43,304 bases of DNA from Chloroflexota bacterium (lineage in GTDB: Bacteria > Chloroflexota > Anaerolineae > Promineifilales > Promineifilaceae): positions 1 through 43,304 of the forward strand of contig JAGNBF010000040.1 of the NCBI GenBank assembly GCA_018004935.1, in the 5' to 3' direction. Of the stretch, positions 16,593 to 32,565 are shown piece after piece. A program made the translations under genes and the position numbers. The notes beneath the pieces are model-generated. The model was not told the DNA's origin. It worked only from the letters and a program-made list of their open reading frames with translations, and searched no databases. Every line of letters begins with the position of its first letter. The first letter of the stretch is position 1.

Positions 16593-16669
16593 GGGATTGT
16601 TCCTTAGATGCCAAAGTGTGTTTACGGAAGTTATTGTAGCACGAGGTAGTGGGCGTGGGAATCCAGTAT

Positions 16670-16729
16670 GCGGCCGCACCCCCAACACTGGCCTGGTGAT
16701 GGTGTGGTGAAAGGGGGGAACGCGGCCGC
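16670..16729. repeat. GCGGCCGC minisatellite, two octamers
   Basis: Octamers at 16670 and 16722, 52 bp apart, the shorter unit length. It separates the RelE-type pair from the XRE-type gene. Confidence 0.85.
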
Positions 16730-16733
16730 GATT

Positions 16734-17458: not shown

Positions 17459-17534
17459 TGCTCACGCTCCTACTCTGATCATGGCGTGAATTATACCCTG
17501 GTTTAGTGGGTCATTCATGGTCGAAAAGGGAGAC

Positions 17535-17900
17535 GCGGCCGCAACGCCCCAAACTAGCCCAGTGATGGTATGGTGAAAGGGGGAACGCGGCCGCAACGCC
17601 CCAAACTAGCCCAGTGATGGTGTGGGGGGAACGCGGCCGCGACCCTCAAAACTGACCCGGTGATGGTGTGGTGAAAGGGAGATGGTGTGGGGGGAACGCG
17701 GCCGCAACGCCAAAAACTGACCCGGTGATGGGTAGTGAAAGGGGAATAGTGTGCGGGGGAACGCGGCCGCAACCCCCGATGCTGGCCCAGTGATGGTGTG
17801 GTGGAAAGGGTGAAGGTTGGGGGAACGCGGCCGCACACCCAATGCTGGCCCGGTTATGGTAAGATGAAAAGGGGAGAAAGTGTGGGGGGAACGCGGCCGC
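17535..17900. repeat. GCGGCCGC minisatellite array, seven octamers
   Basis: Octamers at 17535, 17587, 17633, 17698, 17763, 17827 and 17893, with spacing 52, 46, 65, 65, 64 and 66 bp. Consensus unit: GCGGCCGCAACGCCCAAAAC, then TGGCCCGGTGATGGTGTGGT, then GAAAGGGGAGAAGGTGTGGG. The right part belongs to the duplicated block. Confidence 0.9.
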
Positions 17901-17922
17901 GAGCCAACGAAACGCCAACAGA

Positions 17923-18183
17923 TCAAATGACAGCTTCCACTAGGGGCAAAAATGTTGGACTTAAGAGGTGGTGCAAAGCAATACCATCATCCAGACCATG
18001 CCACCACACCCCATATCCATCTGATTCAATACTGAAATTTTGTTGCTGTTCGGGAGAAGCCTGTACCAGCCATTTCATTTCCGCACAGGGAAAGATAATG
18101 ATTCGACCATCGTTCAAGGCAACCGTCAGAAGGTTGTTCGTAAAAAAGGCACTCACGATGCGGATGTCAGGCAAAGAATCCAT
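17923..18183 (-). CDS. DUF2442-like protein, copy 1
   Basis: 86 residues: LPDIRIVSAFFTNNLLTVAL, NDGRIIIFPC, then a C-terminal helix region GIALHHLLSPTFLPLV. The strand pattern V-x-L-x-D/N-G-R-x-I-x-F fits DUF2442, small proteins usually paired with DUF4160 in toxin-antitoxin-like modules. Here there is no DUF4160 partner. The gene begins about 20 bp after a GCGGCCGC junction with the truncated vapC, so its own promoter may be gone. Confidence 0.7.
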   Translation of the reverse strand: MDSLPDIRIVSAFFTNNLLTVALNDGRIIIFPCAEMKWLVQASPEQQQNFSIESDGYGVWWHGLDDGIALHHLLSPTFLPLVEAVI

Positions 18184-18202
18184 ATTGTTGCCAATGGGGA
18201 AC

Positions 18203-18248
18203 GCGGCCGCAGGATGTCTATCATCACATCACTGTCCAGAATAATCAT
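18203..18248 (-). pseudogene. vapC toxin truncated at GCGGCCGC, copy 1
   Basis: The ATG at 18248 overlaps the vapB end and encodes M-I-I-L-D-S-D-V-M-I-D-I-L-R-P, the first strand of a PIN-domain nuclease with its catalytic Asp (DSD). The frame then enters GCGGCCGC and leaves PIN homology, stopping after about 31 codons. More than 100 residues of the toxin are missing. Confidence 0.82.
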
Positions 18249-18522
18249 CGCCTGCCTCGTTCATGATATTGGGTCGTCTCTGCGCTTGTTCACGTAACTG
18301 CCGAGCATATACTTCACTGTCAGTAATATCTGACCTATCCTGCCACAAACCCACGAGGTCGGAATGGAGTAATTCGCGGGCTGTCAGTCGCGGCCGCGAA
18401 CCCGTCTCTGTCGGCGTAAACAGTAACAACACCTCTACCCGCTGGCCTTTCTCAATCGGCAGGTTCCGCAAGGTTAATTCCCCTTTCTTCTCGATAGTCT
18501 GTTGTACGCGAATCGCTTCCAT
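18229..18522 (-). CDS. VapB-like antitoxin, copy 1
   Basis: 97 residues. It starts MEAIRVQQTIEKKGELTL, a short beta-strand DNA-binding N terminus, then KGQRVEVLLLFTP, and a helical toxin-wrapping tail LLHSDLVGLWQDRSDITDSE. Immediately after it, overlapping by 20 bp, begins the first strand of a PIN toxin, which confirms the VapBC type. A GCGGCCGC (18390) lies in frame in the coding sequence. The toxin is truncated, leaving an orphan antitoxin. Confidence 0.78.
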   Translation of the reverse strand: MEAIRVQQTIEKKGELTLRNLPIEKGQRVEVLLLFTPTETGSRPRLTARELLHSDLVGLWQDRSDITDSEVYARQLREQAQRRPNIMNEAGDDYSGQ

Positions 18523-18598
18523 GTTTTACCTCGGTTTACGATTGGGCAATGGCCTGATTATACCGCAGTTTGCCAGACGGTTGGTATGGGCAGGAAAC

Positions 18599-19332
18599 GC
18601 GGCCGCAACCCCCGATGCTGGCCCAGTGATGGTGTGGTGGAAAGGGTGAAGGTTGGGGGAACGCGGCCGCAACACCCAAAGCTGGCCCGGTTATGGTGCA
18701 GGAAAGGGGGTTGGCGAGGGGGAACGCGGCCGCACACCCGAAACTGGCCTGTTTATGGTGTGGGAAAGAGGAAAGTGTGGGGAAACGCGGCCGCAACGCC
18801 AAAAACTGACCCGGTGATGGGTAGTGAAAGGGGAACGCGGCCGCAACGCCCAACATTGGCCCGGTCATGGTATGGTAAAAGTGGGAAGGGAGAACGCGGC
18901 CGCAATGCCCAGAACTAGCCCAGTGATGGTATGGTGAAAGGGGAAACGCGGCCGCAACGCCCCAAACTAGCCCAGTGATGGTGTGGTGAAAAGGAGGAAC
19001 GCGGCCGCGACCCCAACGCTGGCCCGGTTATGGTGTGATGAAAGGGGAGAAGGTGAGGGGGAACGCGGCCGCGACCCTCAAAACTGACCCGGTGATGGTG
19101 TGGTGAAAGGGAGATGGTGTGGGGGGAACGCGGCCGCAACGCCAAAAACTGACCCGGTGATGGGTAGTGAAAGGGGAATAGTGTGCGGGGGAACGCGGCC
19201 GCAACCCCCGATGCTGGCCCAGTGATGGTGTGGTGGAAAGGGTGAAGGTTGGGGGAACGCGGCCGCACACCCAATGCTGGCCCGGTTATGGTAAGATGAA
19301 AAGGGGAGAAAGTGTGGGGGGAACGCGGCCGC
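18599..19332. repeat. GCGGCCGC minisatellite array, twelve octamers
   Basis: Octamers at 18599, 18663, 18726, 18787, 18837, 18896, 18948, 19001, 19065, 19130, 19195, 19259 and 19325 (thirteen including the last partial unit). Unit lengths range from 50 to 66 bp. The block 18849-19056 is the only part between the two 1,224-bp duplicate copies. No gene within. Confidence 0.9.
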
Positions 19333-19354
19333 GAGCCAACGAAACGCCAACAGA

Positions 19355-19615
19355 TCAAATGACAGCTTCCACTAGGGGCAAAAATGTTGGACTTAAGAGG
19401 TGGTGCAAAGCAATACCATCATCCAGACCATGCCACCACACCCCATATCCATCTGATTCAATACTGAAATTTTGTTGCTGTTCGGGAGAAGCCTGTACCA
19501 GCCATTTCATTTCCGCACAGGGAAAGATAATGATTCGACCATCGTTCAAGGCAACCGTCAGAAGGTTGTTCGTAAAAAAGGCACTCACGATGCGGATGTC
19601 AGGCAAAGAATCCAT
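19355..19615 (-). CDS. DUF2442-like protein, copy 2
   Basis: Identical 86-residue protein to that at 17923-18183, part of the 1,432-bp-period duplication. Two identical copies imply the duplication is recent or is being homogenised. Confidence 0.7.
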   Translation of the reverse strand: MDSLPDIRIVSAFFTNNLLTVALNDGRIIIFPCAEMKWLVQASPEQQQNFSIESDGYGVWWHGLDDGIALHHLLSPTFLPLVEAVI

Positions 19616-19634
19616 ATTGTTGCCAATGGGGAAC

Positions 19635-19680
19635 GCGGCCGCAGGATGTCTATCATCACATCACTGTCCAGAATAATCAT
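19635..19680 (-). pseudogene. vapC toxin truncated at GCGGCCGC, copy 2
   Basis: Same 15-codon PIN-domain start cut at GCGGCCGC as at 18203-18248. Since both copies carry the same break, truncation preceded duplication. Confidence 0.82.
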
Positions 19681-19954
19681 CGCCTGCCTCGTTCATGATA
19701 TTGGGTCGTCTCTGCGCTTGTTCACGTAACTGCCGAGCATATACTTCACTGTCAGTAATATCTGACCTATCCTGCCACAAACCCACGAGGTCGGAATGGA
19801 GTAATTCGCGGGCTGTCAGTCGCGGCCGCGAACCCGTCTCTGTCGGCGTAAACAGTAACAACACCTCTACCCGCTGGCCTTTCTCAATCGGCAGGTTCCG
19901 CAAGGTTAATTCCCCTTTCTTCTCGATAGTCTGTTGTACGCGAATCGCTTCCAT
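19661..19954 (-). CDS. VapB-like antitoxin, copy 2
   Basis: Identical 97-residue protein to that at 18229-18522, with the same in-frame octamer (19822) and the same 20-bp overlap with the truncated vapC. Its upstream region is also identical, so both copies could be expressed. Confidence 0.78.
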   Translation of the reverse strand: MEAIRVQQTIEKKGELTLRNLPIEKGQRVEVLLLFTPTETGSRPRLTARELLHSDLVGLWQDRSDITDSEVYARQLREQAQRRPNIMNEAGDDYSGQ

Positions 19955-20030
19955 GTTTTACCTCGGTTTACGATTGGGCAATGGCCTGATTATACCGCAG
20001 TTTGCCAGACGGTTGGTATGGGCAGGAAAC

Positions 20031-20276
20031 GCGGCCGCAACCCCCGATGCTGGCCCAGTGATGGTGTGGTGGAAAGGGTGAAGGTTGGGGGAACGCGGCC
20101 GCAACACCCAAAGCTGGCCCGGTTATGGTGCAGGAAAGGGGGTTGGCGAGGGGGAACGCGGCCGCACACCCGAAACTGGCCTGTTTATGGTGTGGGAAAG
20201 AGGAAAGTGTGGGGAAACGCGGCCGCAACGCCAAAAACTGACCCGGTGATGGGTAGTGAAAGGGGAACGCGGCCGC
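20031..20276. repeat. GCGGCCGC minisatellite, five octamers
   Basis: Octamers at 20031, 20095, 20158, 20219 and 20269, identical to the run at 18599-18844. This is the last GCGGCCGC seen before 33198. Confidence 0.9.
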
Positions 20277-20403
20277 AACGGTTTGCGTTACCTGCGCTGG
20301 GGCACTGGACGGCGAAGCCGTCCAGCCAGAAAAATGCCAAGGCGTAGAAAACTGCTTGGGATGTGCGCAGAATCCCCAGCGTCAGGTGCACGCTTTGTTG
20401 GCA
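20273..20403 (-). other. attC site (NUDIX cassette)
   Basis: On the minus strand it starts at TGCCAAC (R''), then AAAGCGTGCACCTGACGCTG (L'' side), a variable centre with a GACGGC..GCCGTC hairpin, CAGCGCAGGTAACGCAAACC and GTTGCGG as R'. The R' box is altered because it is fused to a GCGGCCGC minisatellite unit. It starts 20 bp after the NUDIX stop. Confidence 0.88.
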
Positions 20404-20423
20404 CGCTTTTGACCTAAAGATAC

Positions 20424-21032
20424 CTACGCCGAAATAGCAGGAATTAGTTTTTCGGATTTCCACATTTTATAAGCGGCGCGGGCATTTATTTCATGTGTTG
20501 CGTGCCAGTTTTTCATATCATCAAGTGCCCAATATTTTAACGCATGACCTTCATGCGATGTCTTAAGTTGACCACCAATAATTTCACATAGATGAACAAT
20601 AGAAACGGTAGTATGCACACCCATTGTAGCACTTGGTTTGCGAGTAAATACGCCTACCAATTGATTAACCTTAATTTCAAGCCCAGTTTCTTCACGGACT
20701 TCTCTAACAACTCCTTCAACTGGCGTTTCATTTGGCTCAACAAATCCACAAGGCAAACACCAGCCGCTTCCATCAGACCTTTCCATCAAAAGGATTTCAC
20801 CACTTTCATTGAAAATTGCAGCGTCCGTTCCAACTTTTGGCGTTATGTGACCAATTTCATCACGAAATCTTTCCTTGATAAATTCTTCTGGGGCAGATAA
20901 AAGTTCGCTATAAGTTTTTGTTGCTAACCCTAAAAGACGTTCGTATCTTTCTTTGTCAAATTCACTTGTGGGATACCGTAATCCATTTCGGGCAATTGTT
21001 TGAATTGAATCGAGCAATGAAAAAATATCCAT
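20424..21032 (-). CDS. NUDIX hydrolase
   Basis: 202 residues. The NUDIX box is complete: GFVEPNETPVEGVVREVREE then TGLEI (about 117-141), giving G-x5-E-x7-R-E-V-x-E-E-x-G-L. An N-terminal helical domain (residues 1-65) precedes it, as in NUDIX proteins with the 'NUDIX_N' type extension that act on ADP-ribose-like or nucleoside diphosphate substrates. WCLPCGF precedes the box. It is a single-gene integron cassette with attC sites on both sides. Substrate unproven. Confidence 0.9.
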   Translation of the reverse strand: MDIFSLLDSIQTIARNGLRYPTSEFDKERYERLLGLATKTYSELLSAPEEFIKERFRDEIGHITPKVGTDAAIFNESGEILLMERSDGSGWCLPCGFVEPNETPVEGVVREVREETGLEIKVNQLVGVFTRKPSATMGVHTTVSIVHLCEIIGGQLKTSHEGHALKYWALDDMKNWHATHEINARAAYKMWKSEKLIPAISA

Positions 21033-21073
21033 TCAAGATTCCCTTTTGATTTACGCTTATTTTGCACGGAGCG

Positions 21074-21203
21074 TGCCAACGGCTGGCGTTAGCCGCTTGG
21101 GGTGGGAGCGTGGACTCGCCCGCGAAACGGGAAACGCTCCAAGCTACGACAAAGCTCAAAAAACGCGGTGCGTACCCCAAGTCGGCTGCACGCGGTGTTG
21201 GCA
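21074..21203 (-). other. attC site (196-codon hypothetical cassette)
   Basis: Ends TGCCAAC/GTTGGCA, with inner arms GGCGTTAGCCGCTTGGGGT and ACCCCAAGTCGGCTGCACGC pairing except for the extrahelical bases. Its variable centre is unlike the other sites (GGAGCGT..ACGCTCC). It lies 10 bp after the gene's stop. 130 bp. Confidence 0.88.
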
Positions 21204-21212
21204 CGCTTTTGT

Positions 21213-21803
21213 CTATCGAGCATCGTTTTCTTTCAAAAGATAAACTAAGCCCATTGGCATTTGACACGGTTGGATTAAACCATCGTTTACCAATTCTGAG
21301 AATAAGGACTTAACTTCGCTGTACAATTCTTGCATATTCTTTAATTCCTCATCGCCTTGCTTGAGTCTCCATGCTAAATGCGTGTTGAAGAAAAACTCAT
21401 CAAAGGCTTTTTGATTTGGGCAATCCCAATCAATTGGCTCTTGCGTTTCAGAATTTACCAATAAACAACCACCCCCATGAAGTGTGTAATTCCACACTTG
21501 TCCCGTTTGATCGTTCCATACACCTTTTCTTGGAACTCGGATTTCTTCAGAATATCTCAAAATGGCATATATTTCTTTCTCAATTTCATTGACAGGTTCA
21601 TATTCAAATCGGTCTACTGGCTTCTGACCATTTTCACTTGCAGCACCAGAAACCCAACCCAATGCGCCAAATTTTCCAATGGCATTTATATCGAGTTTCA
21701 TGTCTGTCATTGCTTGCACAACCAGTTGTTGTCGTTCAACGAAATAATGAATAGCCTGATAGAGTTCATCTTTAGCAAGGCTTCTTTTCTCGTCTTGTGC
21801 CAT
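21213..21803 (-). CDS. Integron cassette protein, DUF6896-like (tentative)
   Basis: 196 residues, not confidently recognised. The middle part WNYTLHGGGCLLVNSETQEP then IDWDCPNQKAFDEFF resembles the glycine/cysteine plus acidic pattern I associate with DUF6896, with an all-helical N terminus and tail. No signal peptide or membrane segment. It forms a single-gene cassette between two attC sites. Immunity or polymorphic-toxin relatives are possible but unproven. Confidence 0.6.
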   Translation of the reverse strand: MAQDEKRSLAKDELYQAIHYFVERQQLVVQAMTDMKLDINAIGKFGALGWVSGAASENGQKPVDRFEYEPVNEIEKEIYAILRYSEEIRVPRKGVWNDQTGQVWNYTLHGGGCLLVNSETQEPIDWDCPNQKAFDEFFFNTHLAWRLKQGDEELKNMQELYSEVKSLFSELVNDGLIQPCQMPMGLVYLLKENDAR

Positions 21804-21867
21804 GGTACATCACCGAAGAAACTCTTTGAAGTACAAAAAGGTTTTATAGCCAATCATGAAAGGGGCG

Positions 21868-21997
21868 TGCCAACGGTTTGCGTTACCTGCGCTGGGGCGG
21901 GGACGGCGAAGCCGTCCAACCAGAAAAATGATAAGGCGTGTGAAACTGCTTGAGATTTGCGCAGAATCCCCAGCGTCAGGTGCACGCTTTGTTGGGC
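21868..21997 (-). other. attC site (zinc-ribbon/PH cassette)
   Basis: Minus strand: GCCCAAC (21991-21997), AAAGCGTGCACCTGACG, centre with GGACGGC..GCCGTCC hairpin, CGCAGGTAACGCAAACC, GTTGGCA. 130 bp. It lies 97 bp after the nearest stop. Almost identical in its arms to the sites at 20273 and 22947. Confidence 0.92.
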
Positions 21998-22093
21998 GCA
22001 TTGTGCTGAATACCTAATTGTTGATATTAACCAAAAGTGTAACGACTTCTGCAAAAGCCTGTTTGACGGTGTTAACATTCATTAGATGGGCAT

Positions 22094-22894
22094 TTATATA
22101 ACTTTGTAACCCTTGCTGATTTTCTTTTTTCTCAAGGTAATCAATCCAGCCACTAGTAGTGCGACAGACAAGATTTGTCGGTTGGAAGGTGGTGGCACGG
22201 TCAGGAGACCGGCCACAGCTATTCGACGGAATAAGTTTGTTGAACTACTAGTCTTTTTGTTAGTAAATGCTGATGTAACTTGAAGTACCTGTCCTAGCAC
22301 GGCTTGAATACTCTGGAAATTTACTTCTAAAACTACATCTTCATTTTTTCTACCGTAGAAAATAAATTGCACATGACGACTATACTCGGTTTGCTCAACC
22401 TGCTTGAAATTTGATATATCAACAGATACTCCGCTCGGAGTTCCTAGCATACCTAAACCTGTAAGAATTATTAGGCGTTTGTTGGTTATAACCAATTCTC
22501 CCTTTTTGTGTTCCCAAAGAATTTTCCCTTCTTTAGAAACGCCCTTTATTGCCTGCGAAAAAAGTTTATCGCCCATGCCTGGATTTGATACATGCTTCAT
22601 TATTCCAAGATGAACAATCACGCTTTCTTCTTCTGGATTCATTAAAGCCAGATTTACTTTTCGGAAATAATCATTGTAATTTCGCGCAATCGGGTTATCA
22701 GGAATTTTATGCCCTAGTTTAGCAAACAAAGAGCGCAATTGAATAGCCTGTTGAGAAGTCATATAAGGTTTGATTGCAGTTTCTTTTTCAGGAATCGTTA
22801 TTTGCCCTTCGGTCGTAGGCTTGATGGCGTTACCGCAATTTGAACAAAACTTTGCTCCTTCAGAAACACTTTGTCCACAGTTACTACAATACAT
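22094..22894 (-). CDS. Zinc-ribbon plus PH-like domain protein
   Basis: 266 residues. The N terminus is a zinc ribbon (CSNCGQ..CSNCGN, four cysteines). After a linker comes a PH-like domain (GELVITNKRLIILTG near 130, FKQVEQTEYSRHVQFIFYG near 165), as in bacterial proteins with 'zinc ribbon + bPH'. A hydrophobic tail (ILSVALLVAGLITL) may be a membrane anchor. A dispersed 29-bp repeat at 22191-22219 lies in the 3' part of the gene and codes for V-A-G-L-L-T-V-P-P-P. Single-gene cassette. Function unknown. Confidence 0.75.
   Translation of the reverse strand: MYCSNCGQSVSEGAKFCSNCGNAIKPTTEGQITIPEKETAIKPYMTSQQAIQLRSLFAKLGHKIPDNPIARNYNDYFRKVNLALMNPEEESVIVHLGIMKHVSNPGMGDKLFSQAIKGVSKEGKILWEHKKGELVITNKRLIILTGLGMLGTPSGVSVDISNFKQVEQTEYSRHVQFIFYGRKNEDVVLEVNFQSIQAVLGQVLQVTSAFTNKKTSSSTNLFRRIAVAGLLTVPPPSNRQILSVALLVAGLITLRKKKISKGYKVI
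22191..22219 (+). repeat. Dispersed repeat GGTGGC..GGAGACCGGCCACAGC, copy 3
   Basis: Matches copies at 8936 and 9866. It lies inside the zinc-ribbon/PH coding sequence without breaking its frame. Confidence 0.8.
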
Positions 22895-22946
22895 TATTCA
22901 CTCCTTTGATAAGATTTTTTATGTTGTCTGAAATTGTGACGCCAGC

Positions 22947-23076
22947 GCCCAACGGTTTGCGTTACCTGCGCTGGGGCGGGGACGGCGAAGCCGTCCAGCC
23001 TGAAAAATGGTGAGGCGTAGAAAAATGCTTGAGATTTGCGCAGAATCCCCAGCGTCAGGTGCACGCTTTGTTAGAC
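22947..23076 (-). other. attC site (phage-like gene pair cassette)
   Basis: Minus strand: GTCTAAC (23070-23076), AAAGCGTGCACCTGACG, centre, CGCAGGTAACGCAAACC, GTTGGGC (22947-22953). The TAA of the R'' box is also the stop codon of the 141-codon gene, a typical cassette arrangement. 130 bp. Confidence 0.93.
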
Positions 23077-23496
23077 CCCGCCACATTTGAGCAAGGCTAC
23101 ACGGGAAACAGCAAGGGAGATTGTATCTGCTTCTGCACTATATTCAGTAATACTCCCATTAAGCACATCACTCCAAAGACACGCCCGCCACTTTACACCT
23201 GCTTCTGTATTTATGGATTCAATGCGCCAAGCAAACGGTTCTTTTGTCATTATAGTTATAACTTCCTGCGTGGCGGAAATATCCTTGCTAAATGCTTTCG
23301 GCGTCCATTCGCAAACATCACCGTTAAGATATTCTGGCGTACAGTGCCAGTTTTTTTCAGTTGACCATTGTGTTGAAAAAACATTATCGTGAACATGAGT
23401 ATAAACAGGCTTGCTTTCACCAAATACTATTTCTGCGACAAGTTCATCAATCTCTTTACCTGCGAGCATGGTTTCAATCTGGCTTTTATCCATCAT
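23071..23496 (-). CDS. Phage ABA-sandwich-like small protein
   Basis: 141 residues. Segments KEIDELVAEIVFGE at the start, AFAWRIESI-like (PFAWRIESINTEAGVKWRAC) in the middle and ADTISLAVSRVALLKCGG at the end fit the short alpha-beta-alpha 'phage ABA sandwich' domain common in phage and cassette proteins. No catalytic motif is visible. It starts in a TAATG overlap with the 57-codon gene upstream, and its stop lies inside the attC. Confidence 0.65.
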   Translation of the reverse strand: MMDKSQIETMLAGKEIDELVAEIVFGESKPVYTHVHDNVFSTQWSTEKNWHCTPEYLNGDVCEWTPKAFSKDISATQEVITIMTKEPFAWRIESINTEAGVKWRACLWSDVLNGSITEYSAEADTISLAVSRVALLKCGGV

Positions 23497-23669
23497 TAAT
23501 CCTGCTGTGTGTCTGACTTACGCAATTTCAATTTTACACTTTTACGCTCTCGACGATTGTATTTTTGCTTGACACGCTTTCTTTCACCAGACCGCCATTT
23601 TAGATATTTTCTCCATCTGGTAAGTGCGTCTACTTCGTCACCACTAATCATTGGAATTCGTTTTGGCAT
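23496..23669 (-). CDS. Small basic protein, 57 residues, phage-like
   Basis: It starts MPKRIPMISGDEVDAL, then TRWRKYLKWRSGERKRVKQK and a basic tail KSVKLKLRKSDTQQD. The pattern DALTRWRKYLxWRxGERKxxKxxYNRR recurs in small phage/cassette proteins as I recall. The TAA overlaps the ATG of the next gene (TAATG), so the two are translationally coupled. Too short for most gene finders. Confidence 0.65.
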   Translation of the reverse strand: MPKRIPMISGDEVDALTRWRKYLKWRSGERKRVKQKYNRRERKSVKLKLRKSDTQQD

Positions 23670-23700
23670 TTTGGATTGAACCTGTATTTTGCACGAAGGG

Positions 23701-23829
23701 GTCTAACGGTTTGCGTTACCTGCGTGTGGGCGGGCGTGGATTCTGTTTGGGAGCAGGAAAATGCTGAGGCTAGAAAAATGCTTGAAAATGCCGCAGAATC
23801 CCACACGTCAGGTGCACGCTTTGTTAGAC
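23701..23829 (-). other. attC site (type I R-M cassette)
   Basis: Minus strand: GTCTAAC (23823-23829), AAAGCGTGCACCTGACGTGTG, variable centre, CACACGCAGGTAACGCAAACC, GTTAGAC (23701-23707). 129 bp. It lies 30 bp after the hsdR stop. Confidence 0.93.
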
Positions 23830-23858
23830 CCGCTCTTGACCTTGAAGGCTTATTTTGC

Positions 23859-26837
23859 CTAATAATACTCTCGAATGTACGCATAAGCCCGATTAAAAAG
23901 TTCTTCGTCTTTGATGGGATATTTCACCCAAAGAATTCTCCGCAACTCTTGTTTTACTACGCGCTCGCCTTGCGTTGAATTTTGCCAACCGTCATATCGA
24001 ACATATTTAACGATGTTATCAATATCGGTGACGATTCTTTCTACAACTGCGGGCGTTTGGTCGGTTCGTAGTTCAAGGAATAATTCAGTGAGGGCGGCTT
24101 TCGCGGTTTTTCGCTCGTCAACTGTATCTGTTTGCTTTTCGGCTTGAACAGTTTCGCGGGCAATTTCGCACAAGTGCTTTATGAATTCAATGCTACTGAT
24201 AAGACCTTGCTCGGCTCTGGCGCGTAAGGCTTCAAGGCGTTGACTCAATGCTATGAAAATTGGATTGTTCCCATGTCGCGCTAAACGGCTGATAAGGATT
24301 TTCATAATCCGTTGCGCTTCTTTGGGGTCTTTGTTATTCATCAATTCATCAATCACTTTGGCGTCTAAAACCATTTCTTCCATTTCGTGACTGATTCCAT
24401 CCACATGAATATGCTCATGGATTAACTTCGTAGTTTGTGCGCCTAAAGCGTGCCAAAGTAGCCTGCCGTTATCGTCAGAAGTTGGCTTGACTGAAAGATA
24501 AACTTGGGAAAGCCATTTATATTCTTTTTGATATTGATTCAGGATTTCATCAGGCGAGAGGGCTTCCCAAAGTTTGGAAAGTGAATTGAAGTCTTTGGCG
24601 AAAGCGTCCCGTTTTTCATCGGTCTTGATACATTCCTGCGCGGCTTGCAAGCCTTCAAAGCCTTCGATGGTTCTATCAATTCCAGCAAAATGAGACAAGC
24701 AATCTGCCAACACTTGCGGCAACTTGTCTTTCAATTCTTTCAAATTGGTAATAACCATCTTGACGGTTTCTTCATCAAATGCCAAAGCCTGCGCCGTGTC
24801 ATCGAATACGCCAAAATAATCCACAATGCGCCCAAAAGTTTTGTTGGGGAATAGTCGGTTCGTTCTGCAAATGGCTTGTAATAATGTATGGTCTTTGAGC
24901 GATTTATCCAAATACATCGTTTGGAGAATAGGCGCGTCAAAACCAGTTAACAATTTTGCTGTGACAATCAAAAACTTAAGCGCGGAATCTGTGTCATTGA
25001 ATTCTTCGACGACTTTTTCCTGCTGGTCTTTATCCATGCCCCATTTTTGTTTGAATTCAAGTTCATCATTTGCCGAAGTGCTGATAACAACTTTGCTGGC
25101 GGCGAAGGGCAAAAATTTATCTAATTCTTCTTTGTATTGGATACAAGCGGGGCGGTCAGGCGTGACAATCATCGCCTTGAATCCTTCGGGTTCAACATGC
25201 TTTTTGAAGTGTTCAACAATATCTTGAACAATCTGTCTGACTCGTTCAGGCGATTTCAGAAAAACCGCCATGCTTGCCGCTTTTTTGCTTAACTTGTCTC
25301 TATCTTCTTCGTTAAGTTCGTTTGCCATTTCTTTGAAGGCAATATCCAAACTTTCTTTATCAACATGATAGTTTGGTAATCGTGGCTCAAAATGTAAAGG
25401 CAAAGTAGCATTATCGCGGATACTTTCTTGAAAAGTATAGCGGCTCATGTATCCGTTGGAATCTTCCTGTGCGCCAAAAGCCCAAAACGTATTTTTATCG
25501 GCTTTATTGATTGGTGTGCCTGTTAAACCAAATAAAAAGGCATTAGGTAAAGCGGCTCTCATTTTTCGCCCTAAATCGCCTTCTTGGGTTCGGTGCGCTT
25601 CGTCCACCATCACGATAATATTTTCCCGCTTGTTCATTTCGGGATAGGCTTCTTTGAATTTGTGAATCATCGTGATAATGATTTTTCGGCTGTCACGTTC
25701 TAGTAAATCATGCAATTCTTTGATGTTGTCCGTCGTGACCATGTTTGGCACATCGGCAGAATTAAAGGTGGCAGTGATTTGAGTATCTAAATCAATTCTA
25801 TCTACCACAATCAAAACGGTTGGATTTCCAAGTTCTTCCACCTTGCGGAGTTTTTGTGCGGCAAACAACATGAGCAGGGATTTACCTGACCCTTGAAAAT
25901 GCCAGATTAATCCTTTTTTGATTTCACCATCCAGCACACGTTGAACAAGCATGTTTGCGCCTTCGTATTGCTGATAACGGCAAACAACTTTGATTTTCTT
26001 TTTCTTGTTGTCGGTAGCGTAAATGGTAAAGTGTTGCAGAATATCCAACAATGTAGAAGGTTTCAATAAGTGCGTTAATTGCTTGGCAACATCCTGCAAG
26101 CCTGCAAAATGGGTGATTTCATCTCGTTCTTCTTCGATTCGCCAGGGCGACCAAAATTCCAAAGGCGTTCTCACGCCGCCGATGAAAACTTCTTTGCCTT
26201 CGGTAGAAAATGAAAAGACATTGGGAACAAATAACTGCGGAACGGCATTTTCATAGACAACATTTATATCGTGTGCGCCGTCTAACCAACTGACAGCAGG
26301 GCGGACGGGCGTTTTGGCTTCGCCTACAACCAAAGGAATCCCGTTCACCAACATTACAATATCGGGGATTTTTGTTTCTCGCGCATGAATTTTGAATTGA
26401 TTGGTGAGAATGAAAGAATTGTTGCGTGGATTTTCAAAGTCAATTAAACGCACGGGAACATGTTGTTCATTTTTGCCAAACGGCAGATTGACTTCGCCCC
26501 GCAAGTATTTTGCAAATTCTTCATTTGCTCGTACCAAGCCGACATTGCCGACTGAAAGCAAAATTGCCCTAAGTTTACGAATGACTTCATCGGCAAATTC
26601 AGGCTGTGCCGCAATTTCAGGATTGATTCGGCATAAAGCGTCAATTAATTCTTTTTCAACGAATACATCTGTGATTTCACGCTGGAGAAGTTCGCCTTGA
26701 ACGTACTTCCACTTTACATCACCATACCCAACGGGTTCTTCCTTGACCATGCCACCATGCGCGTTGTTCAAGTTCACGCCTGTCAGGTTGTGAATAATGA
26801 AGTGCTCGACGCTGTTAAGTTCGTTAAATCCGCTCAC
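23859..26837 (-). CDS. hsdR: Type I restriction enzyme R subunit (HsdR)
   Basis: 992 residues, near the usual length. The N-terminal PD-(D/E)XK nuclease is seen in IPDIVMLVNGIPLVVGEAKT (about 153-172). The motor domain has a Walker A in HFQGSGKSLLMLFAA (~317-331), DEAH box VDEAHRTQEGDLG (~414-426), motif III FGLTGTPI, and later helicase motifs (TAKLLTGFDAP, QAICRTNR). A C-terminal helical region follows. It acts in the cytoplasm with HsdM/S, cleaving DNA after ATP-driven translocation. It starts 11 bp after the hsdMS stop. Confidence 0.95.
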   Translation of the reverse strand: MSGFNELNSVEHFIIHNLTGVNLNNAHGGMVKEEPVGYGDVKWKYVQGELLQREITDVFVEKELIDALCRINPEIAAQPEFADEVIRKLRAILLSVGNVGLVRANEEFAKYLRGEVNLPFGKNEQHVPVRLIDFENPRNNSFILTNQFKIHARETKIPDIVMLVNGIPLVVGEAKTPVRPAVSWLDGAHDINVVYENAVPQLFVPNVFSFSTEGKEVFIGGVRTPLEFWSPWRIEEERDEITHFAGLQDVAKQLTHLLKPSTLLDILQHFTIYATDNKKKKIKVVCRYQQYEGANMLVQRVLDGEIKKGLIWHFQGSGKSLLMLFAAQKLRKVEELGNPTVLIVVDRIDLDTQITATFNSADVPNMVTTDNIKELHDLLERDSRKIIITMIHKFKEAYPEMNKRENIIVMVDEAHRTQEGDLGRKMRAALPNAFLFGLTGTPINKADKNTFWAFGAQEDSNGYMSRYTFQESIRDNATLPLHFEPRLPNYHVDKESLDIAFKEMANELNEEDRDKLSKKAASMAVFLKSPERVRQIVQDIVEHFKKHVEPEGFKAMIVTPDRPACIQYKEELDKFLPFAASKVVISTSANDELEFKQKWGMDKDQQEKVVEEFNDTDSALKFLIVTAKLLTGFDAPILQTMYLDKSLKDHTLLQAICRTNRLFPNKTFGRIVDYFGVFDDTAQALAFDEETVKMVITNLKELKDKLPQVLADCLSHFAGIDRTIEGFEGLQAAQECIKTDEKRDAFAKDFNSLSKLWEALSPDEILNQYQKEYKWLSQVYLSVKPTSDDNGRLLWHALGAQTTKLIHEHIHVDGISHEMEEMVLDAKVIDELMNNKDPKEAQRIMKILISRLARHGNNPIFIALSQRLEALRARAEQGLISSIEFIKHLCEIARETVQAEKQTDTVDERKTAKAALTELFLELRTDQTPAVVERIVTDIDNIVKYVRYDGWQNSTQGERVVKQELRRILWVKYPIKDEELFNRAYAYIREYY

Positions 26838-26848
26838 TATGTTTCCCT

Positions 26849-28246
26849 TTAAGTAATTGAATCGTTTGTGATTGATACTCTCAAATGTTCCAACTTCTCT
26901 TGAAATTTATTCATTTCATCGTTGAGTCTCTTTGACATAAAATCGAATTTTTCAAGAGTTTCGATGATTTTTTCTTGTTCTTCAATAGTAGGCAACCCAA
27001 ATTCATAATCCGCCATTTCTTTCCATTTGGTTCTTGGCGATAATGAGCCTGCTGAAGTGTAAGTCGCAAAATTTATAAAGTCGTTGCTTCTGGCAATATA
27101 TGGAAGGTATTTTGGAAGCAAAACGTCATACTTATCTTTTTTTACTTCAAATACCAATATGTCCCCTGAACATATCCCGTCAAAATTTGCAACGGCAACT
27201 TTCTTTAGATATGACCTTCTTTTGCTAAACAAAACGTTCCCATCAAAGAATCGTTTTGTAAAAGATGTGCCGTTCTTAATCAGTCCGTATCCTTGAATTT
27301 CAAAAGTTTCTGAACTAAGGTTTTCTAAACCAACAAACTTTTCAAGACCTTTATCAAGTGGTTTTGATTCCGACTTGTTTAAGTTATTTACAACATCCTT
27401 GAATTTGTATTTCTTCCAATTCTCTTTTCCTTCGATAATTTTTCTAAACTTTTCAAGTTCGGTGTCAGAAGTAATGTAAGCATTAAATTCAGAAACAGCG
27501 TCTATGCTGTTTCTGGATTTTTCTATGTAGTTTGATAATTCTGCGCCAACGTCAAATCTATCTGCGATTGATTGCGGAACATACCTTGAAATTGTCAGGT
27601 TTGCATTTTGTTCTTTCAAGACTTCGTTGATTGAAACAACTTTGGCGAAGCCTTCGACATCTTTGAAATCTTTGTATGCTCTAAAGATTTTGCTTATATG
27701 GCTTTCGTCTAGGTAACTATAAGCAGTTACTCTTGCCACATCTTCTGCCGCGTTAATAAAGATAATTTTATTCTTGCGCTTTTTATCTTTTTGCGTCCTG
27801 CAAATTAGCAGGCAAGACTCCATTGTGGAGTTGTAAAATAGATTTGCTCCTAATCCGATAACGGCGTCTACCAAATCCGCCTCAATCATCTTCCTTCGCA
27901 TTTCTAATTCTGCGTCACGGTATAAAACTCCATGTGGGAATAATATGATACAACGTCCCGTATCAGGATTAAGGCTTTTTATGATGTGTTGCAAGAAAGC
28001 GTAATCTGCATTGCCTTGAGGCGGTGTTCCCCAAATATTTCTTCCAAACGGGTCATTTGCAAATTTGGCTTGATTCCAGCGTTTAATGCTATATGGCGGA
28101 TTTGCCATTATTACATCAAATCTTTTTAGTTCGTCGTTTTCCAAAATTTGTGGATTGTCCAGTGTATCGCCTTGAACAATCAAGAATTCATCTACATTGT
28201 GCATGAACATATTGATACGGGCAATCGCAGAAGTAATTAAATTCAA
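26849..28246 (-). CDS. HsdM C-terminal part fused to HsdS-like specificity domain (3' fragment)
   Basis: 465 residues. The N6-adenine methyltransferase motif IV NPPY appears near residue 50 (FDVIMANPPYSIKRW), with MTase strands to ~200. The second half is a single target-recognition domain with an HsdS-type conserved helix (LPTIEEQEKIIETLEKFDFM near 430). So M and a half-S subunit are joined in one chain; a single TRD predicts a symmetric bipartite target when dimeric. The 5' part of hsdM lies upstream in a different frame, separated by an 8-bp tandem duplication. Confidence 0.87.
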   Translation of the reverse strand: MNLITSAIARINMFMHNVDEFLIVQGDTLDNPQILENDELKRFDVIMANPPYSIKRWNQAKFANDPFGRNIWGTPPQGNADYAFLQHIIKSLNPDTGRCIILFPHGVLYRDAELEMRRKMIEADLVDAVIGLGANLFYNSTMESCLLICRTQKDKKRKNKIIFINAAEDVARVTAYSYLDESHISKIFRAYKDFKDVEGFAKVVSINEVLKEQNANLTISRYVPQSIADRFDVGAELSNYIEKSRNSIDAVSEFNAYITSDTELEKFRKIIEGKENWKKYKFKDVVNNLNKSESKPLDKGLEKFVGLENLSSETFEIQGYGLIKNGTSFTKRFFDGNVLFSKRRSYLKKVAVANFDGICSGDILVFEVKKDKYDVLLPKYLPYIARSNDFINFATYTSAGSLSPRTKWKEMADYEFGLPTIEEQEKIIETLEKFDFMSKRLNDEMNKFQEKLEHLRVSITNDSIT

Positions 28247-28932
28247 TTCCTGCCCGTAAAGTTTGAGCGTGCGGTATTCCTTGATTCCTTGCTTTGTTCT
28301 TTGAGATGCAAGACGCTGTTAAGCAAAATTCCACCACTCCCGCATGTCGGGTCGTACACGCTTTCGCCTGATTTCGGGTCGGTAATCATCGTCATCAGTT
28401 TTACAACCGTGCGATTGGTATAAAACTCTGCGGCAGTATGTCCGCTATCATCAGCAAATTTCTTAATCAGATATTCGTAGCCTTCGCCCATGATGTCATG
28501 CGGCACTTCGGCAACGGTCAATTTGTACTTTGAAAAATGCTCAATCAAATCCAGCATTTTTTCATCGCTCATGCGGCGTTTGTTTGTCCATTGCGCGTCG
28601 CCAAAGACATCATGCAACATTTCAAAATTGGCTTTCTCAATTCCTTTGAAAGCCTTTTGCAAAGCCGCGCCAACATTGTTTGTTTTCTTCCTTACATCTT
28701 CCCAGTGACAACCCTTTGGAATTTGAAAACGGTGATTCTCTTGAAACTCGGCATAATCGAAATCATCGCCGCTTTCTTCTAAAGCCTGCTGATATTCTTC
28801 GTCCCATAAATCGCTTATGCGTTTGAAAAACAATAAGGGGAAAATGTATTGTTTGAAATCTGCCGCGTCAATTAATCCGCGCAGAATGTTTGCTGCTCCC
28901 CAGAGATAGGCTTCGAGTTCTTTCGTGTTCAT
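28243..28932 (-). CDS. HsdM N-terminal part (5' fragment, frameshifted)
   Basis: 229 residues: a helical HsdM N domain (LEAYLWGAANILRGLIDAAD), then the SAM-binding motif I DPTCGSGGILLN near 196-207. The natural continuation, KEYRTLKLYGQELN and on to the next ORF, is in another frame because ATTCCTTG occurs twice in tandem at 28276-28291. Deleting one copy restores one 690-residue HsdMS chain. As it stands, the fragment ends 17 residues into the wrong frame, so the methylase should be OFF. Confidence 0.9.
   Translation of the reverse strand: MNTKELEAYLWGAANILRGLIDAADFKQYIFPLLFFKRISDLWDEEYQQALEESGDDFDYAEFQENHRFQIPKGCHWEDVRKKTNNVGAALQKAFKGIEKANFEMLHDVFGDAQWTNKRRMSDEKMLDLIEHFSKYKLTVAEVPHDIMGEGYEYLIKKFADDSGHTAAEFYTNRTVVKLMTMITDPKSGESVYDPTCGSGGILLNSVLHLKEQSKESRNTARSNFTGRN
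28276..28291. repeat. Two tandem copies of ATTCCTTG causing the hsdM frameshift
   Basis: 8 bp is not a multiple of 3, so gain or loss of one copy switches the frame. Removal of one copy restores the conserved K-E-Y-R-T-L-K-L-Y-G-Q-E motif. Confidence 0.85.
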
Positions 28933-29055
28933 AAAGTGTGATTGTCCCTTGAAATGAGGTGAAAGGCATTATATCCGATGAACTTGGAAGGTCACTCGTT
29001 GCCAACCTTTGATTTACCTGACGAATAAAAAAAATGAGATTATTGTGCAAGGAAG

Positions 29056-29185
29056 GGTCTAACGGTTTGCGTTACCCGCAAGTGGGCGGGTGTGGACTCG
29101 GCTTGAGAGCAGTATAAACCCGAAGCCAGAAAAATGTTTGTAAATCGCGCAGAATCCCACTTGTCGGGTGCACGCTTTGTTGGGC
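29056..29185 (-). other. attC site (NTF2-like cassette)
   Basis: Minus strand: GCCCAAC (29179-29185), AAAGCGTGCACCCGACAAGTG, variable centre, CACTTGCGGGTAACGCAAACC, GTTAGAC (29056-29062). It marks the upstream boundary of the R-M cassette and the downstream end of the NTF2-like cassette. Confidence 0.93.
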
Positions 29186-29295
29186 AAACCCGATTGCGCC
29201 AGACCTGCCTGCTAAAAAAGATAACGCGGCCAACTTGACTAAATTTTACATGCAATTCAATTTTTGATAATTGCTGGATACAAAAATAATGCTAA

Positions 29296-29763
29296 TTAAC
29301 TCGCCACTGTTGATTGCGACTCAAACGGACGTGAGTTTGGCGGTGTATTTGTGGACACTACAGTTGCTAAACGCCACCTATTATGTTGACGAATATACAT
29401 TTCTTGCCAAGCAAATGTCGTATCTTCTTCCATCCATATATCAGATTCAGCAAGATAACGTAAATGAACATATTTATGAACGATGACGGTTGCAAGACTA
29501 GTATCTTCTGCTACATGAATGATTGGTGGCGTAATATCATCCCAGGCAATGAATGTTACCTTGTCGAAATATGCTTGCAAACGCTGGAGACTCTCGGCAT
29601 AAGTAGGGCGAACAATTTTCCCGTTGGAAATATTAATAAATTCATCAGCAAATAAGTCAACCAATTTTTTAGCGTTTGCTGTGAGATGAGCACTCCGTTG
29701 TTCTGATTGCAACTGCAATAATTCTTGGATTGCTGAGTTTTGCGATTGATCGAATTGTGGCAT
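29296..29763 (-). CDS. NTF2-like (DUF4440/SnoaL-type) protein
   Basis: 155 residues: an N-terminal helix QELLQLQSEQRSAHLTANA, then LVDLFADEFINISNGKIVRP and a closing strand NRWRLATVVSTNT. This is the NTF2-like pattern, with no safely assigned catalytic residues. First intact cassette after the IS91 element, bounded by attC at 29056 and 29801. A second NTF2-like gene lies at 9905-10471 but is not close in sequence. Confidence 0.72.
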   Translation of the reverse strand: MPQFDQSQNSAIQELLQLQSEQRSAHLTANAKKLVDLFADEFINISNGKIVRPTYAESLQRLQAYFDKVTFIAWDDITPPIIHVAEDTSLATVIVHKYVHLRYLAESDIWMEEDTTFAWQEMYIRQHNRWRLATVVSTNTPPNSRPFESQSTVAS

Positions 29764-29800
29764 TGAGTGGTAGTTCCTTAGAAAGTGTTATCAAGGGGTT

Positions 29801-29906
29801 GCCCAACACTTGCTTCACCAGCGCGGCCAGTTGACCCAATAATTCCCCATAACCACATAACGCTGCCCTTTATGGTCTGCCGCGTCTGGTGCAAGCATAG
29901 TTGCAC
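29801..29906 (-). other. attC site of a cassette lost next to the IS91-family element
   Basis: Minus strand: GTGCAAC (29900-29906), TATGCTTGCACCAGACGCGG, centre, CCGCGCTGGTGAAGCAAGT, GTTGGGC (29801-29807). Arms pair with extrahelical bases in the usual positions. The gene that should lie to its right is absent; the IS91-family gene begins about 210 bp away. Confidence 0.85.
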
Positions 29907-30115
29907 GAATGGCGTATCAGCGTGGCTATGGGGTTTTTAAGCCGTTATCTTTTGCGCCCGCTTGGACTAGAATGACGGCCTGAAACGTTTGATTTGCCGC
30001 CCAAAGGGTTAACCTGACTTCTTATTCTGACTTCACCCTGCATTTAAGCTACAAGATACACCTGATTTTACCCTGTTTGTCAGCCAGCAGGCGCAATTGT
30101 CCCCTGAATACCGAT
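29907..30115. other. Gene-free interval between attC and IS91-family transposase
   Basis: About 210 bp with no coding sequence. It presumably contains the transposase-distal end (oriIS side) of the IS91-family element, but I could not place the exact terminus. Confidence 0.5.
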
Positions 30116-31339
30116 TTATTGCACCGCCGCCAACCAGCGCCGTCGGCAGGGATGCGGCTCAATCGTTTGATAAGGCCGCCAACTGCCCACGCCGCAAAGC
30201 GGGCATTGGTTTGGATCATGGCCTAACATCTGGCGCAGTATCGCCTCCCGGTCGCTCGTTGGGGCAGCGTTTTCCTCACTGTCACCCAAGAGCGTCCGGC
30301 AACGCGCCAATTTCTGCTGACGATAGCGGGGTGCCAAAAAGCCATAGTGCCGCACCCGCACATATTGTTTGGGTAACACGTGCTGCAAAAAACGCCGGAT
30401 AAATTCTACCGCCGGTAATACCATCTCTTTTTGTTGCCCATTGGCCTGGTAATCCCGGTAAGTAAAGCGCACCTGCCCGTCACTTATAGCCAGCAAACGA
30501 CCGTTGCTAAATGCAATCCGATGCACATAACGCCCCAAGTAATCCAGCACTTGCTCCGGCTGACCAAACGGCGGTTGGGCATACACCTGCCACTTTTTGC
30601 TCCTGGCCTCGGCTAGTAAGTTAGCAAAAGCATCGGCATCGGCTAAATGGTGGCTTTGCCCACTAAACTGTAAACGGCTGGCGGCGTACAACTGAGATAG
30701 GCCAGCACAAATGGCATCCCGAAATCGGGCTGCCAGGGCGACCACATCACATAAATAGCTGGGAGAAGTGGCACGCCATCGTCTCCCATTCGCGCTTAAT
30801 GCTCCACCGGGCACTAAACAATGCAAGTGGGGATGCTCAGTTAAGGTCTGTCCCCAGGTATGGAGAATCGCGGTCATGCCGATTTCGCCCCCTAGCTCCT
30901 CGCAGCAGATTTGCTTCAAGGTATCTGTCGCTGTCTGAAATAACAGGTCGTAAAGCAGTTTCTGGTTGACCCGTATGAGCGGATTCAAGTCATGATCCAG
31001 GGTGAAAACTACATGGAAGTAATGGACGGGTAAGAGGTAGGTGCGTTGTTTTTCCAGCCATTGGGCTTTGGCCAGGCTGCCACATTTGGGGCAATGGCGG
31101 TTGCGGCAAGAGTTGTACGAGACGCGTAGCCCGCCACAGTTGTCGCACTCGTCCACATGACCGCCGAGTATGGCTGTGCGGCACTGCCCAATATCCCGCA
31201 TCACCAAATGTTGTTGGTAAGACAGGCTGTACTGACGGCGAAACTCATCTCCATACAGACGGAAGATGTCAGCTACCTCAAAATGGGGGCTGTTATCAGT
31301 CTCGACTGCTGTAGGAGATGCTTCCGAATAATTTGACAT
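30116..31339 (-). CDS. IS91-family (Y1 HUH) transposase
   Basis: About 407 residues from the ATG at 31339 (a GTG at 31390 gives 424). An N-terminal zinc-binding domain (CDNCGGL..CRNRHCPKCG near 45-70) is followed by the HUH motif HPHLHCLVPGG (~150-160) and the catalytic-tyrosine region YLGRYVHRIAFSNGRL (~255-270). A second zinc-like CPLCG is near the C terminus. It makes a rolling-circle transposase acting on single strands. It looks intact and is on the strand of the cassettes, divergent from intI. Confidence 0.92.
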   Translation of the reverse strand: MSNYSEASPTAVETDNSPHFEVADIFRLYGDEFRRQYSLSYQQHLVMRDIGQCRTAILGGHVDECDNCGGLRVSYNSCRNRHCPKCGSLAKAQWLEKQRTYLLPVHYFHVVFTLDHDLNPLIRVNQKLLYDLLFQTATDTLKQICCEELGGEIGMTAILHTWGQTLTEHPHLHCLVPGGALSANGRRWRATSPSYLCDVVALAARFRDAICAGLSQLYAASRLQFSGQSHHLADADAFANLLAEARSKKWQVYAQPPFGQPEQVLDYLGRYVHRIAFSNGRLLAISDGQVRFTYRDYQANGQQKEMVLPAVEFIRRFLQHVLPKQYVRVRHYGFLAPRYRQQKLARCRTLLGDSEENAAPTSDREAILRQMLGHDPNQCPLCGVGSWRPYQTIEPHPCRRRWLAAVQ

Positions 31340-31396
31340 AGGCTCTGCTACCTCTGGCAATAAGGCAACAGTTTGACCTGTTTTATGCACGAATAC

Positions 31397-31410
31397 AGAA
31401 CATATGTTTC
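31397..31410. promoter_or_regulatory. Candidate LexA (SOS) box between tnpA and intI
   Basis: AGAACATATGTTTC matches the Gram-positive/Cheo-type LexA consensus CGAACRNRYGTTYC at 13 of 14 positions. It lies about 185 bp before the intI start, in the only promoter region for intI. SOS control of intI is established in proteobacteria; here it is inference. Confidence 0.5.
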
Positions 31411-31421
31411 GTGCAACTATG

Positions 31422-31539: not shown

Positions 31540-31593
31540 GTTTTGGTGGGATTATCAAGCGGTGAAGGAACAAAAACACGCCGGAAGGTGGGT

Positions 31594-32565
31594 ATGGAAG
31601 CGAAGCCTAAGAAGTTGCTAGATCAAGTGCGGGATAAAATACGGTTGAAGAATTATTCGTATGAAACGGAAAAGAGTTATGTAGATTGGATCAAGCGGTT
31701 CATTCTTTTCCATGAAAAGCGTCACCCCGCAGAAATGGGCAAAATAGAGATCGAAGCGTTTTTAACCCACCTGGCCGTGGCAAAGGATGTCGCCGCTTCA
31801 ACCCAAAATCAGGCTCTCCACGCCCTCTTGTTTTTGTACCGCGAGGTGTTAGTTCAACCTATTGATCTGAACCTTAAGGCTGTTCGGGCAAAAAGACCTG
31901 AACGGCTACCCACTGTTTTGACAAAAGAAGAGGTCAATCAGGTGATTGCCCAGTTGTCTGGTGTGCCCCAACTGGTGGCTCAATTGTTGTACGGCAGTGG
32001 CATGAGAGTCACGGAATGCCTTTCATTGCGGGTTAAAGATGTTGATCTGAAACAGCGGGAGATTGTGATCAGAGCCGGTAAGGGGGATAAAGACCGGGTG
32101 ACCGTTCTACCGAATAGTCTGGTGGAACCGCTGAAAACCCATTTACAGAAGGTCAAAAAACAGCATAACGATGATCTGGCCTTGGGTCATGGCCGTGTCC
32201 CATTGCCTCATGCCTTAGCCAGAAAGTACTCCAATGCCAACCAGGAGTGGGCCTGGCAGTTCATTTTCCCCTCCAGCACGCTTTCTACCGACCCCCGCGC
32301 TACTGATGGTGTTTTATACCGCTATCACCTTCATGATAGTGTCATTCAAAAAGCCGTCAGGCGGGCCGGGCAACAAGCCAAAATTGCCAAGCCCGTCAGT
32401 CCTCATACCTTTCGGCATAGTTTTGCCACCCATCTTTTGCAAGCCGGTTATGATATTCGCACCGTCCAGGAGTTGTTGGGGCACAAAGATGTCAAAACAA
32501 CGATGATTTACACCCATGTCTTGAATCGGGGCGGCTTAGGCGTTCGTAGTCCCTTGGATGAGTAG
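31594..32565 (+). CDS. intI: Integron integrase IntI
   Basis: 324 residues from the ATG at 31594 (GGAAGGTGGGT just upstream). An N-terminal SAM-like core-binding domain precedes the tyrosine recombinase catalytic set: Arg in [14 protein letters not shown], Lys in [42 protein letters not shown]. Integron-specific features are the additional helix region ([27 protein letters not shown], ~205-235) and the C terminus [12 protein letters not shown]. These distinguish it from XerC/D. It lies divergent to the cassette array, with attC sites in the orientation expected for minus-strand cassettes. attI was not pinpointed. Confidence 0.95.

What the first reader, a model, noticed from the sequence alone, without database searches (positions are those of the whole stretch)
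23707..29061. A whole type I restriction-modification locus as one ~5.4-kb integron cassette
From the attC at 29056 to the attC at 23701 the only genes are hsdMS (two frames) and hsdR, all in cassette orientation, with an attC 30 bp after the hsdR stop. Cassettes are normally one small gene, so a 5.4-kb defence operon is exceptional and would let an integron shuffle a full R-M system.
Basis: partly seen in the sequence, partly recalled or inferred. Interest (0 to 1): 0.85.

Follow-up and report, generated by a model that had tools for sequence, protein, structure and literature searches.

The report
Type I restriction locus as integron cassette
A bacterial DNA-defence operon of 5.4 kb, several times longer than the mobile gene cassettes around it, is bounded at exactly the joints where an integron cuts, and a fuller 6.7-kb version with the same joints sits between different neighbours in an only distantly related genome; the copy here appears to be broken.

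Summary
The block is real and is one integron cassette: window 29062-23707, 5,356 bp, third of seven cassettes behind an integron integrase (31543-32565). All seven cassettes pass an end-matching test: the 5' end complements the R'' box of the cassette's own attC over 9-11 bases. No attC lies inside the block. The strongest evidence is a second array, L021 (groundwater Anaerolineales MAG), where homology starts at the same G^TTAGAC joint and stops at the next, between different neighbours. That cassette is 6,690 bp with hsdM, a two-TRD hsdS, a BRO-N gene and hsdR. HsdR is 96% identical between the two, RpoB only 65%, so it moved horizontally. Corrections: the window block is not a whole, working locus. 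HsdM is fused to half an HsdS (one TRD), a layout known from engineered active enzymes, and an 8-bp tandem duplication breaks the hsdM frame, so this copy is probably inactive. The specificity segment was replaced between the two cassettes while the shell stayed 86-92% identical. A review says defence systems of more than two genes are absent from integrons; a metagenome survey discarded attC sites over 4 kb apart.

The parts
31543..32565 (+). integron integrase intI, divergent from the array
   Evidence: TIGR02249 469 bits, cut-off 265
31411..31420 (-). attI crossover, G31417^T31416, at the intI-proximal end of cassette 1
   Evidence: context CATAGTTGCAC has the layout of attI in related integrons (...ATAGTTGGGC...ATAGTTAGGC) at a similar distance from intI; cassette 1 ends match over 10 bases. 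Full extent of attI not tested
29807..31416 (-). cassette 1, 1,610 bp: IS91-type Y2 transposase gene (31390-30116) with its own attC (29906-29801)
   Evidence: NF033538 430 bits; attC 27.9 bits, E 4.9e-07; end match 10 bases
29063..29806 (-). cassette 2, 744 bp: DUF4440-like 155-aa protein
   Evidence: PF14534 E 7e-05, just below cut-off; end match 9
29057..29185 (-). attC of cassette 2 = upstream border of the R-M cassette
   Evidence: 135 bits; L''/L' stem folds on the bottom strand
23707..29062 (-). cassette 3, 5,356 bp: the type I R-M cassette
   Evidence: boundaries shared to the base with L021:877-7566; end match 9 bases; no internal attC
28968..28995 (-). candidate sigma-70-like promoter GTGACC-16-TATAAT inside the cassette, upstream of hsdM
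   Evidence: 10 of 12 consensus matches; identical in L021. Six promoter-like hits in the region against 4.2 expected, so not significant alone
28243..28932 (-). hsdM, first part of the frame (229 aa; HsdM_N and MTase motif I)
   Evidence: PF12161, PF02384; 96% aa identical to L021 HsdM over 218 residues
28276..28291 (-). 8-bp tandem duplication CAAGGAATCAAGGAAT that shifts the hsdM frame
   Evidence: single copy in L021; ten relatives have one uninterrupted hsdM
26849..28246 (-). second frame: rest of HsdM (NPPY motif) fused to one HsdS target-recognition domain (half HsdS)
   Evidence: PF02384 residues 3-225 and PF01420 residues 275-436; PADLOC MTase_I model PDLC03038 covers 231-673 of 896
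26830..27960 (-). replaced segment: hsdM 3' part and hsdS region unlike L021 (about 50-70% identity) inside an otherwise 86-92% identical cassette; borders approximate
   Evidence: sliding identity along the two cassettes
23859..26837 (-). hsdR, 992 aa, intact frame with PD...EAK nuclease and Walker A/DEAH motor motifs
   Evidence: TIGR00348 555 bits; sequence
23701..23829 (-). attC of the R-M cassette
   Evidence: 144 bits; bottom-strand fold -24.7 kcal/mol, z -3.4
22953..23706 (-). cassette 4, 754 bp: unknown 141-aa and 78-aa ORFs
   Evidence: end match 10 bases; no Pfam match
21874..22952 (-). cassette 5, 1,079 bp: zinc-ribbon protein, 266 aa
   Evidence: PF13240; end match 9
21080..21873 (-). 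cassette 6, 794 bp: DUF6896 protein; attC 21203-21074
   Evidence: PF21837; attC 69.7 bits; end match 10
20279..21079 (-). cassette 7, 801 bp: Nudix hydrolase; attC 20403-20273
   Evidence: PF00293; attC 134 bits; end match 11

Best explanation
A type I R-M operon became, or was captured as, one integron cassette in Anaerolineae: the operon sits between a cassette 5' end and an attC at its 3' end. Integrase-mediated recombination at attC sites moved it between arrays as a unit, which is why two distantly related hosts hold it at identical joints next to different neighbours. Inside the cassette the specificity segment (hsdM 3' part, hsdS and, in L021, a BRO-N gene) has been replaced while the ends and hsdR were kept. 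In the window the result is HsdM fused to half an HsdS plus HsdR; such a fusion would act as a dimer recognising a symmetric bipartite site. An 8-bp tandem duplication has since broken hsdM, so this copy is probably a stored, inactive one. Shown by comparison: cassette boundaries, shared joints, transfer, segment replacement, frame break. Inferred: that IntI carried out the move, that the intact L021 form restricts phage, and that the broken copy is inactive.
For: Integrase and attC family. Seven of seven window cassettes with self-matching ends, against 11.7% for non-neighbouring pairs. Homology with L021 begins at G^TTAGAC and ends at GTTAG, with unrelated neighbours on both sides. L021 cassette 877-7566 holds hsdM 491 aa, hsdS 371 aa with two TRD matches, BRO-N 280 aa, hsdR 991 aa. 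HsdR 96% identical (38 of 991 residues differ) against RpoB 65%. In the window's order, 56 genomes searched, only one other has a full-length relative, 55% identical. GC 41% in the cassette against 51% in the rest of the window. HsdM-half-HsdS fusions with HsdR are active when engineered (PMC6158711).
Against: No circular intermediate or excision was seen. Excision in E. coli was measured only for cassettes with inserts up to about 3 kb and falls for some attC pairs above 1.5 kb (PMC5371416). Both genomes are draft assemblies; L021 is a 12.3-kb contig, so host assignment could be a binning error (the shared joints do not depend on it). HsdR does not resolve whether the two cassettes are each other's closest kin: the non-cassette L022 falls in the same three-way fork. 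The 8-bp duplication could be an assembly error.
Confidence: 0.86

Rival explanations
1. The 5.4-kb gap is two or more ordinary cassettes (hsdMS and hsdR) whose internal attC was lost or has decayed.
For: Some other long gaps in related arrays (5,036, 4,094, 3,443 and 3,017 bp) fail the end-matching test and probably are such cases.
Against: The two outer ends of this block match each other over 9 bases, as they do in L021. hsdMS and hsdR are 11 bp apart, and the order M-S-R occurs in chromosomal operons. No attC remnant inside with filters off.
Confidence: 0.04
2. A chromosomal R-M operon sits between attC sites because homologous recombination or an insertion put it into a cassette, and the integrase never moved it.
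For: Close relatives of the operon live outside integrons (L022, 94% HsdR identity). The replaced specificity segment shows that homologous recombination acts on it.
Against: Window and L021 share the 130-bp leader and 29-bp tail up to the exact crossover points, with different neighbouring cassettes on both sides; homologous recombination would not be expected to stop at those bases on both sides.
Confidence: 0.08
3. The window copy is functional despite two frames: translation re-starts at the TTG that overlaps the stop (TTGA), giving a split HsdM that reassembles.
For: The two frames overlap in TTGA at 28246-28243 and the second frame is otherwise intact for 465 codons; motif I and NPPY are both present, on separate parts.
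Against: All ten relatives aligned have one hsdM frame; the break lies at an 8-bp tandem duplication typical of slippage; the re-started part would lack about eight conserved residues (YRTLKLYGQE region).
Confidence: 0.1

Closest known systems
Anti-phage cassettes of sedentary chromosomal integrons in Vibrio (Darracq et al. 2025; Getz et al. 2025, as reviewed in PMC12409362)
   Same: defence genes carried as attC-bounded cassettes behind an integron integrase
   Different: those are small; the review states that R-M genes in integrons are reduced in size and that systems of more than two genes are notably absent. This cassette is 5.4 kb, and 6.7 kb with four genes in L021. The original papers were not readable here
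Type II R-M genes in integron cassettes
   Same: R-M carried as a cassette; the next cassette in L021 is an N6/N4 MTase plus BglII-like endonuclease
   Different: type I enzymes need three subunits and over 5 kb
Chromosomal hsdM-hsdS-hsdR operons (L022, L023, L024, L035)
   Same: HsdR 88-95% identical, same gene order
   Different: no attC, unrelated flanks, separate hsdS
Engineered HsdM-half-HsdS fusion, M1/2Sfus (PMC6158711)
   Same: HsdM joined to one TRD, HsdR supplied separately
   Different: engineered from S. aureus CC398; here natural and frame-broken

Membership tests
Integron gene cassette | attC with R''/L''/L'/R' stem and unpaired spacers or extrahelical bases at the 3' end | tested here: met
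   144 bits; bottom strand folds with the stem and unpaired spacers
Integron gene cassette | boundaries at G^TTRRRY, cassette 5' end complementary to its own R'' | tested here: met
   9-base match; 11.7% of non-neighbouring pairs reach 7
Integron gene cassette | an integron integrase next to the array | tested here: met
   31543-32565, 469 bits
Integron gene cassette | found in another array with different neighbours | tested here: met
   L021
Integron gene cassette | excises as a circle / integrates at attI | not testable with these tools
   needs a bench assay
Type I restriction-modification system | HsdR with nuclease and SWI2/SNF2 motor | tested here: met
   PF04313, PF18766, TIGR00348
Type I restriction-modification system | intact HsdM N6-adenine methyltransferase | tested here: not met
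   frame broken by 8-bp duplication in the window; intact in L021
Type I restriction-modification system | HsdS with two target-recognition domains | tested here: not met
   one Methylase_S domain fused to HsdM in the window; two matches in L021 HsdS
Type I restriction-modification system | methylation and restriction activity | not testable with these tools
   no read or methylation data

The most novel reading that the evidence does not exclude
Integrons carry and exchange complete multi-gene type I R-M systems as cassettes well above 4 kb, with the specificity segment swapped inside a conserved cassette shell, and large cassettes have been overlooked because surveys assume attC sites within 4 kb of each other.
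Probability: 0.5. Interest if true: 0.75.

Novelty: new variant of a known kind. Interest (0 to 1): 0.62.

Why it matters
Integrons are now seen as libraries of anti-phage genes, but only of small ones; the review of the Vibrio work says systems of more than two genes are absent. Here a cassette of 6.7 kb with four genes, and a 5.4-kb derivative, sit in two arrays at identical joints. One metagenome survey discarded attC sites more than 4,000 bases from the next, so such cassettes could be missed by design. If the size limit is softer than thought, integrons can move whole defence operons, and finding them is a matter of changing one setting. The replaced specificity segment also suggests that the cassette is a carrier whose target can be changed.

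Tried and rejected
(1) A further type I cassette: G128:C500 has hsdR about 1 kb upstream of an attC, but the cassette there starts near 8927 and holds a 155-aa gene, so hsdR lies outside it. (2) Among 44 attC-bearing genomes of the class, no other hsdR over the family cut-off lies near a listed attC of this family (at most 11 attC candidates per genome were scored, so weaker sites may be missed). (3) Other long gaps (G227, G247, G280, G224) fail the end-match test; G243:C5 (5,504 bp, 7-base match) may be another long cassette but matches no known defence family in Pfam. (4) attC in the 18 other genome loci that carry the operon: none. L039 looked as if it had an attC remnant after hsdR; the model does not support it. 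(5) Viral contigs and plasmids: no close relative. (6) A natural full-length HsdM-half-HsdS relative: none found in 298 class and 400 phylum genomes. (8) The original IntegronFinder paper is not held, so its clustering distance is not cited. (9) My first attC regex was too strict and found nothing.

Full report
WHAT IS THERE. The window carries an integron. An integron integrase (31543-32565, TIGR02249, 469 bits) faces away from an array of cassettes on the minus strand. A covariance model built from ten attC sites finds seven sites in the window: 29906-29801, 29185-29057, 23829-23701, 23076-22947, 21997-21868, 21203-21074 and 20403-20273. The block in question lies between the second and the third.

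IS IT ONE CASSETTE? In a genuine cassette the first bases after the crossover (TTRRRY) complement the R'' box of its own attC, because both stood side by side in the circle. In nine arrays, 35 of 46 neighbouring attC pairs match over seven or more bases against 11.7% of non-neighbouring pairs. All seven window cassettes match over 9-11 bases; the R-M block matches over 9 (GTTAGACCC). With filters off, nothing inside the block scores above 9.3 bits, against 135-144 for its borders. hsdMS and hsdR are 11 bp apart. The block is therefore one 5,356-bp cassette, 29062-23707. Median spacing of attC sites in ten arrays is 876 bp (49 intervals).

DOES IT MOVE? A search of 84,980 species genomes returned 19 loci with a related hsdR. 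One, L021 (Anaerolineales, Hainich groundwater), lies in an attC array. Alignment of its ends with the window shows unrelated sequence upstream, attC-level similarity in the preceding attC, then near-identity (99% over the first 98 aligned bases) from G^TTAGAC on; at the other end, close similarity through hsdR, tail and attC up to GTTAG, then unrelated sequence. Different neighbours, same joints: that is the signature of cassette exchange. The L021 cassette is 6,690 bp with hsdM, hsdS (two Methylase_S matches), a BRO-N protein (PADLOC PDC-S13) and hsdR. HsdR differs at 38 of 991 positions, while RpoB of the two genomes is 65% identical. In the window's own order, 56 genomes, the next relative is 55% identical.

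WHAT STATE IS IT IN? Ten relatives have one hsdM frame of 491-493 codons. In the window an 8-bp tandem duplication (CAAGGAAT twice, from 28291) shifts the frame. Further on, HsdM is about full length but continues directly into a single target-recognition domain: a HsdM-half-HsdS fusion. No full-length natural relative of that fusion was found among the searched genomes of the class and phylum, although longer M-S frames exist (PADLOC model PDLC03038; a 1001-codon frame in G193). Engineered HsdM-half-HsdS fusions dimerise, methylate a palindromic site and restrict with HsdR (PMC6158711), so the layout is workable; the frame break makes this copy probably inactive. hsdR is intact.

THE REPLACED MIDDLE. 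Along the two cassettes identity is 86% over the first 1.3 kb and 92% over the last 3.1 kb, but about 50-70% between 27960 and 26830, where the specificity determinants lie. The shell stayed and the specificity segment changed.

WHERE IT CAME FROM. The operon family occurs in many phyla without attC of this kind (attC of other lineages may escape this model). The closest non-cassette copy, L022, falls with the window and L021 in a fully supported group of three whose inner order is unresolved. The leader and tail between the joints and the genes are shared only by the two cassettes. One capture followed by spread is likely, but not proven.

EXPRESSION. The cassette has a promoter-like TATAAT site conserved in L021, not significant by itself. 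Two cassettes, one with an IS91-type transposase gene, separate it from attI, so any integron promoter is some 2.4 kb away.

LITERATURE. In the held library no paper found reports a type I R-M cassette. A review of Vibrio work says that R-M genes in integrons are size-reduced and that systems of more than two genes are notably absent (PMC12409362). A metagenome survey kept only attC sites within 4,000 bases of another, as an assumed upper limit (PMC7370490). Excision has been measured with inserts up to about 3 kb (PMC5371416). Kieffer, Darracq and Getz (2025) were not readable here, so novelty rests on a partial view.

VERDICT. Observation confirmed; interpretation partly supported. A multi-gene type I R-M system is a mobile integron cassette in Anaerolineae; the window's copy is a fused, probably broken version of it.

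Noticed in passing
31416-29807: An IS91-type Y2 transposase gene lies inside a cassette with matching ends and a divergent attC, directly at attI.
   Followed up: partly
14186-20265: Directly beyond the last attC lies a repeat array of about 46-65-bp units with an AACGCGGCCGCAAC core, plus a 1,432-bp duplication; the last R' box (GTTGCGG) reads into this core.
   Followed up: no
L021:7567-9326: The cassette after the R-M cassette in L021 encodes an N6/N4 methyltransferase and a BglII-like endonuclease: two R-M systems side by side as cassettes.
   Followed up: partly
L065:2419-7797 (G243:C5): A 5.5-kb interval with a 920-aa ORF and a 7-base end match, perhaps another very long cassette.
   Followed up: partly
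L039:5751-8217: A broken hsdR (86-92% identical pieces) in a MAG named Thiomargarita, with a short attC-like stretch after the stop that the model does not support.
   Followed up: partly
1-337: Three copies of a 105-bp unit with inverted CGATTT-type arms; related 58-bp copies at 9758, 37185 and 39407.
   Followed up: no
G000 and class (Anaerolineae): 61 of 298 genomes of the class carry this attC family; one array (G233:C4) has at least 18 sites.
   Followed up: partly
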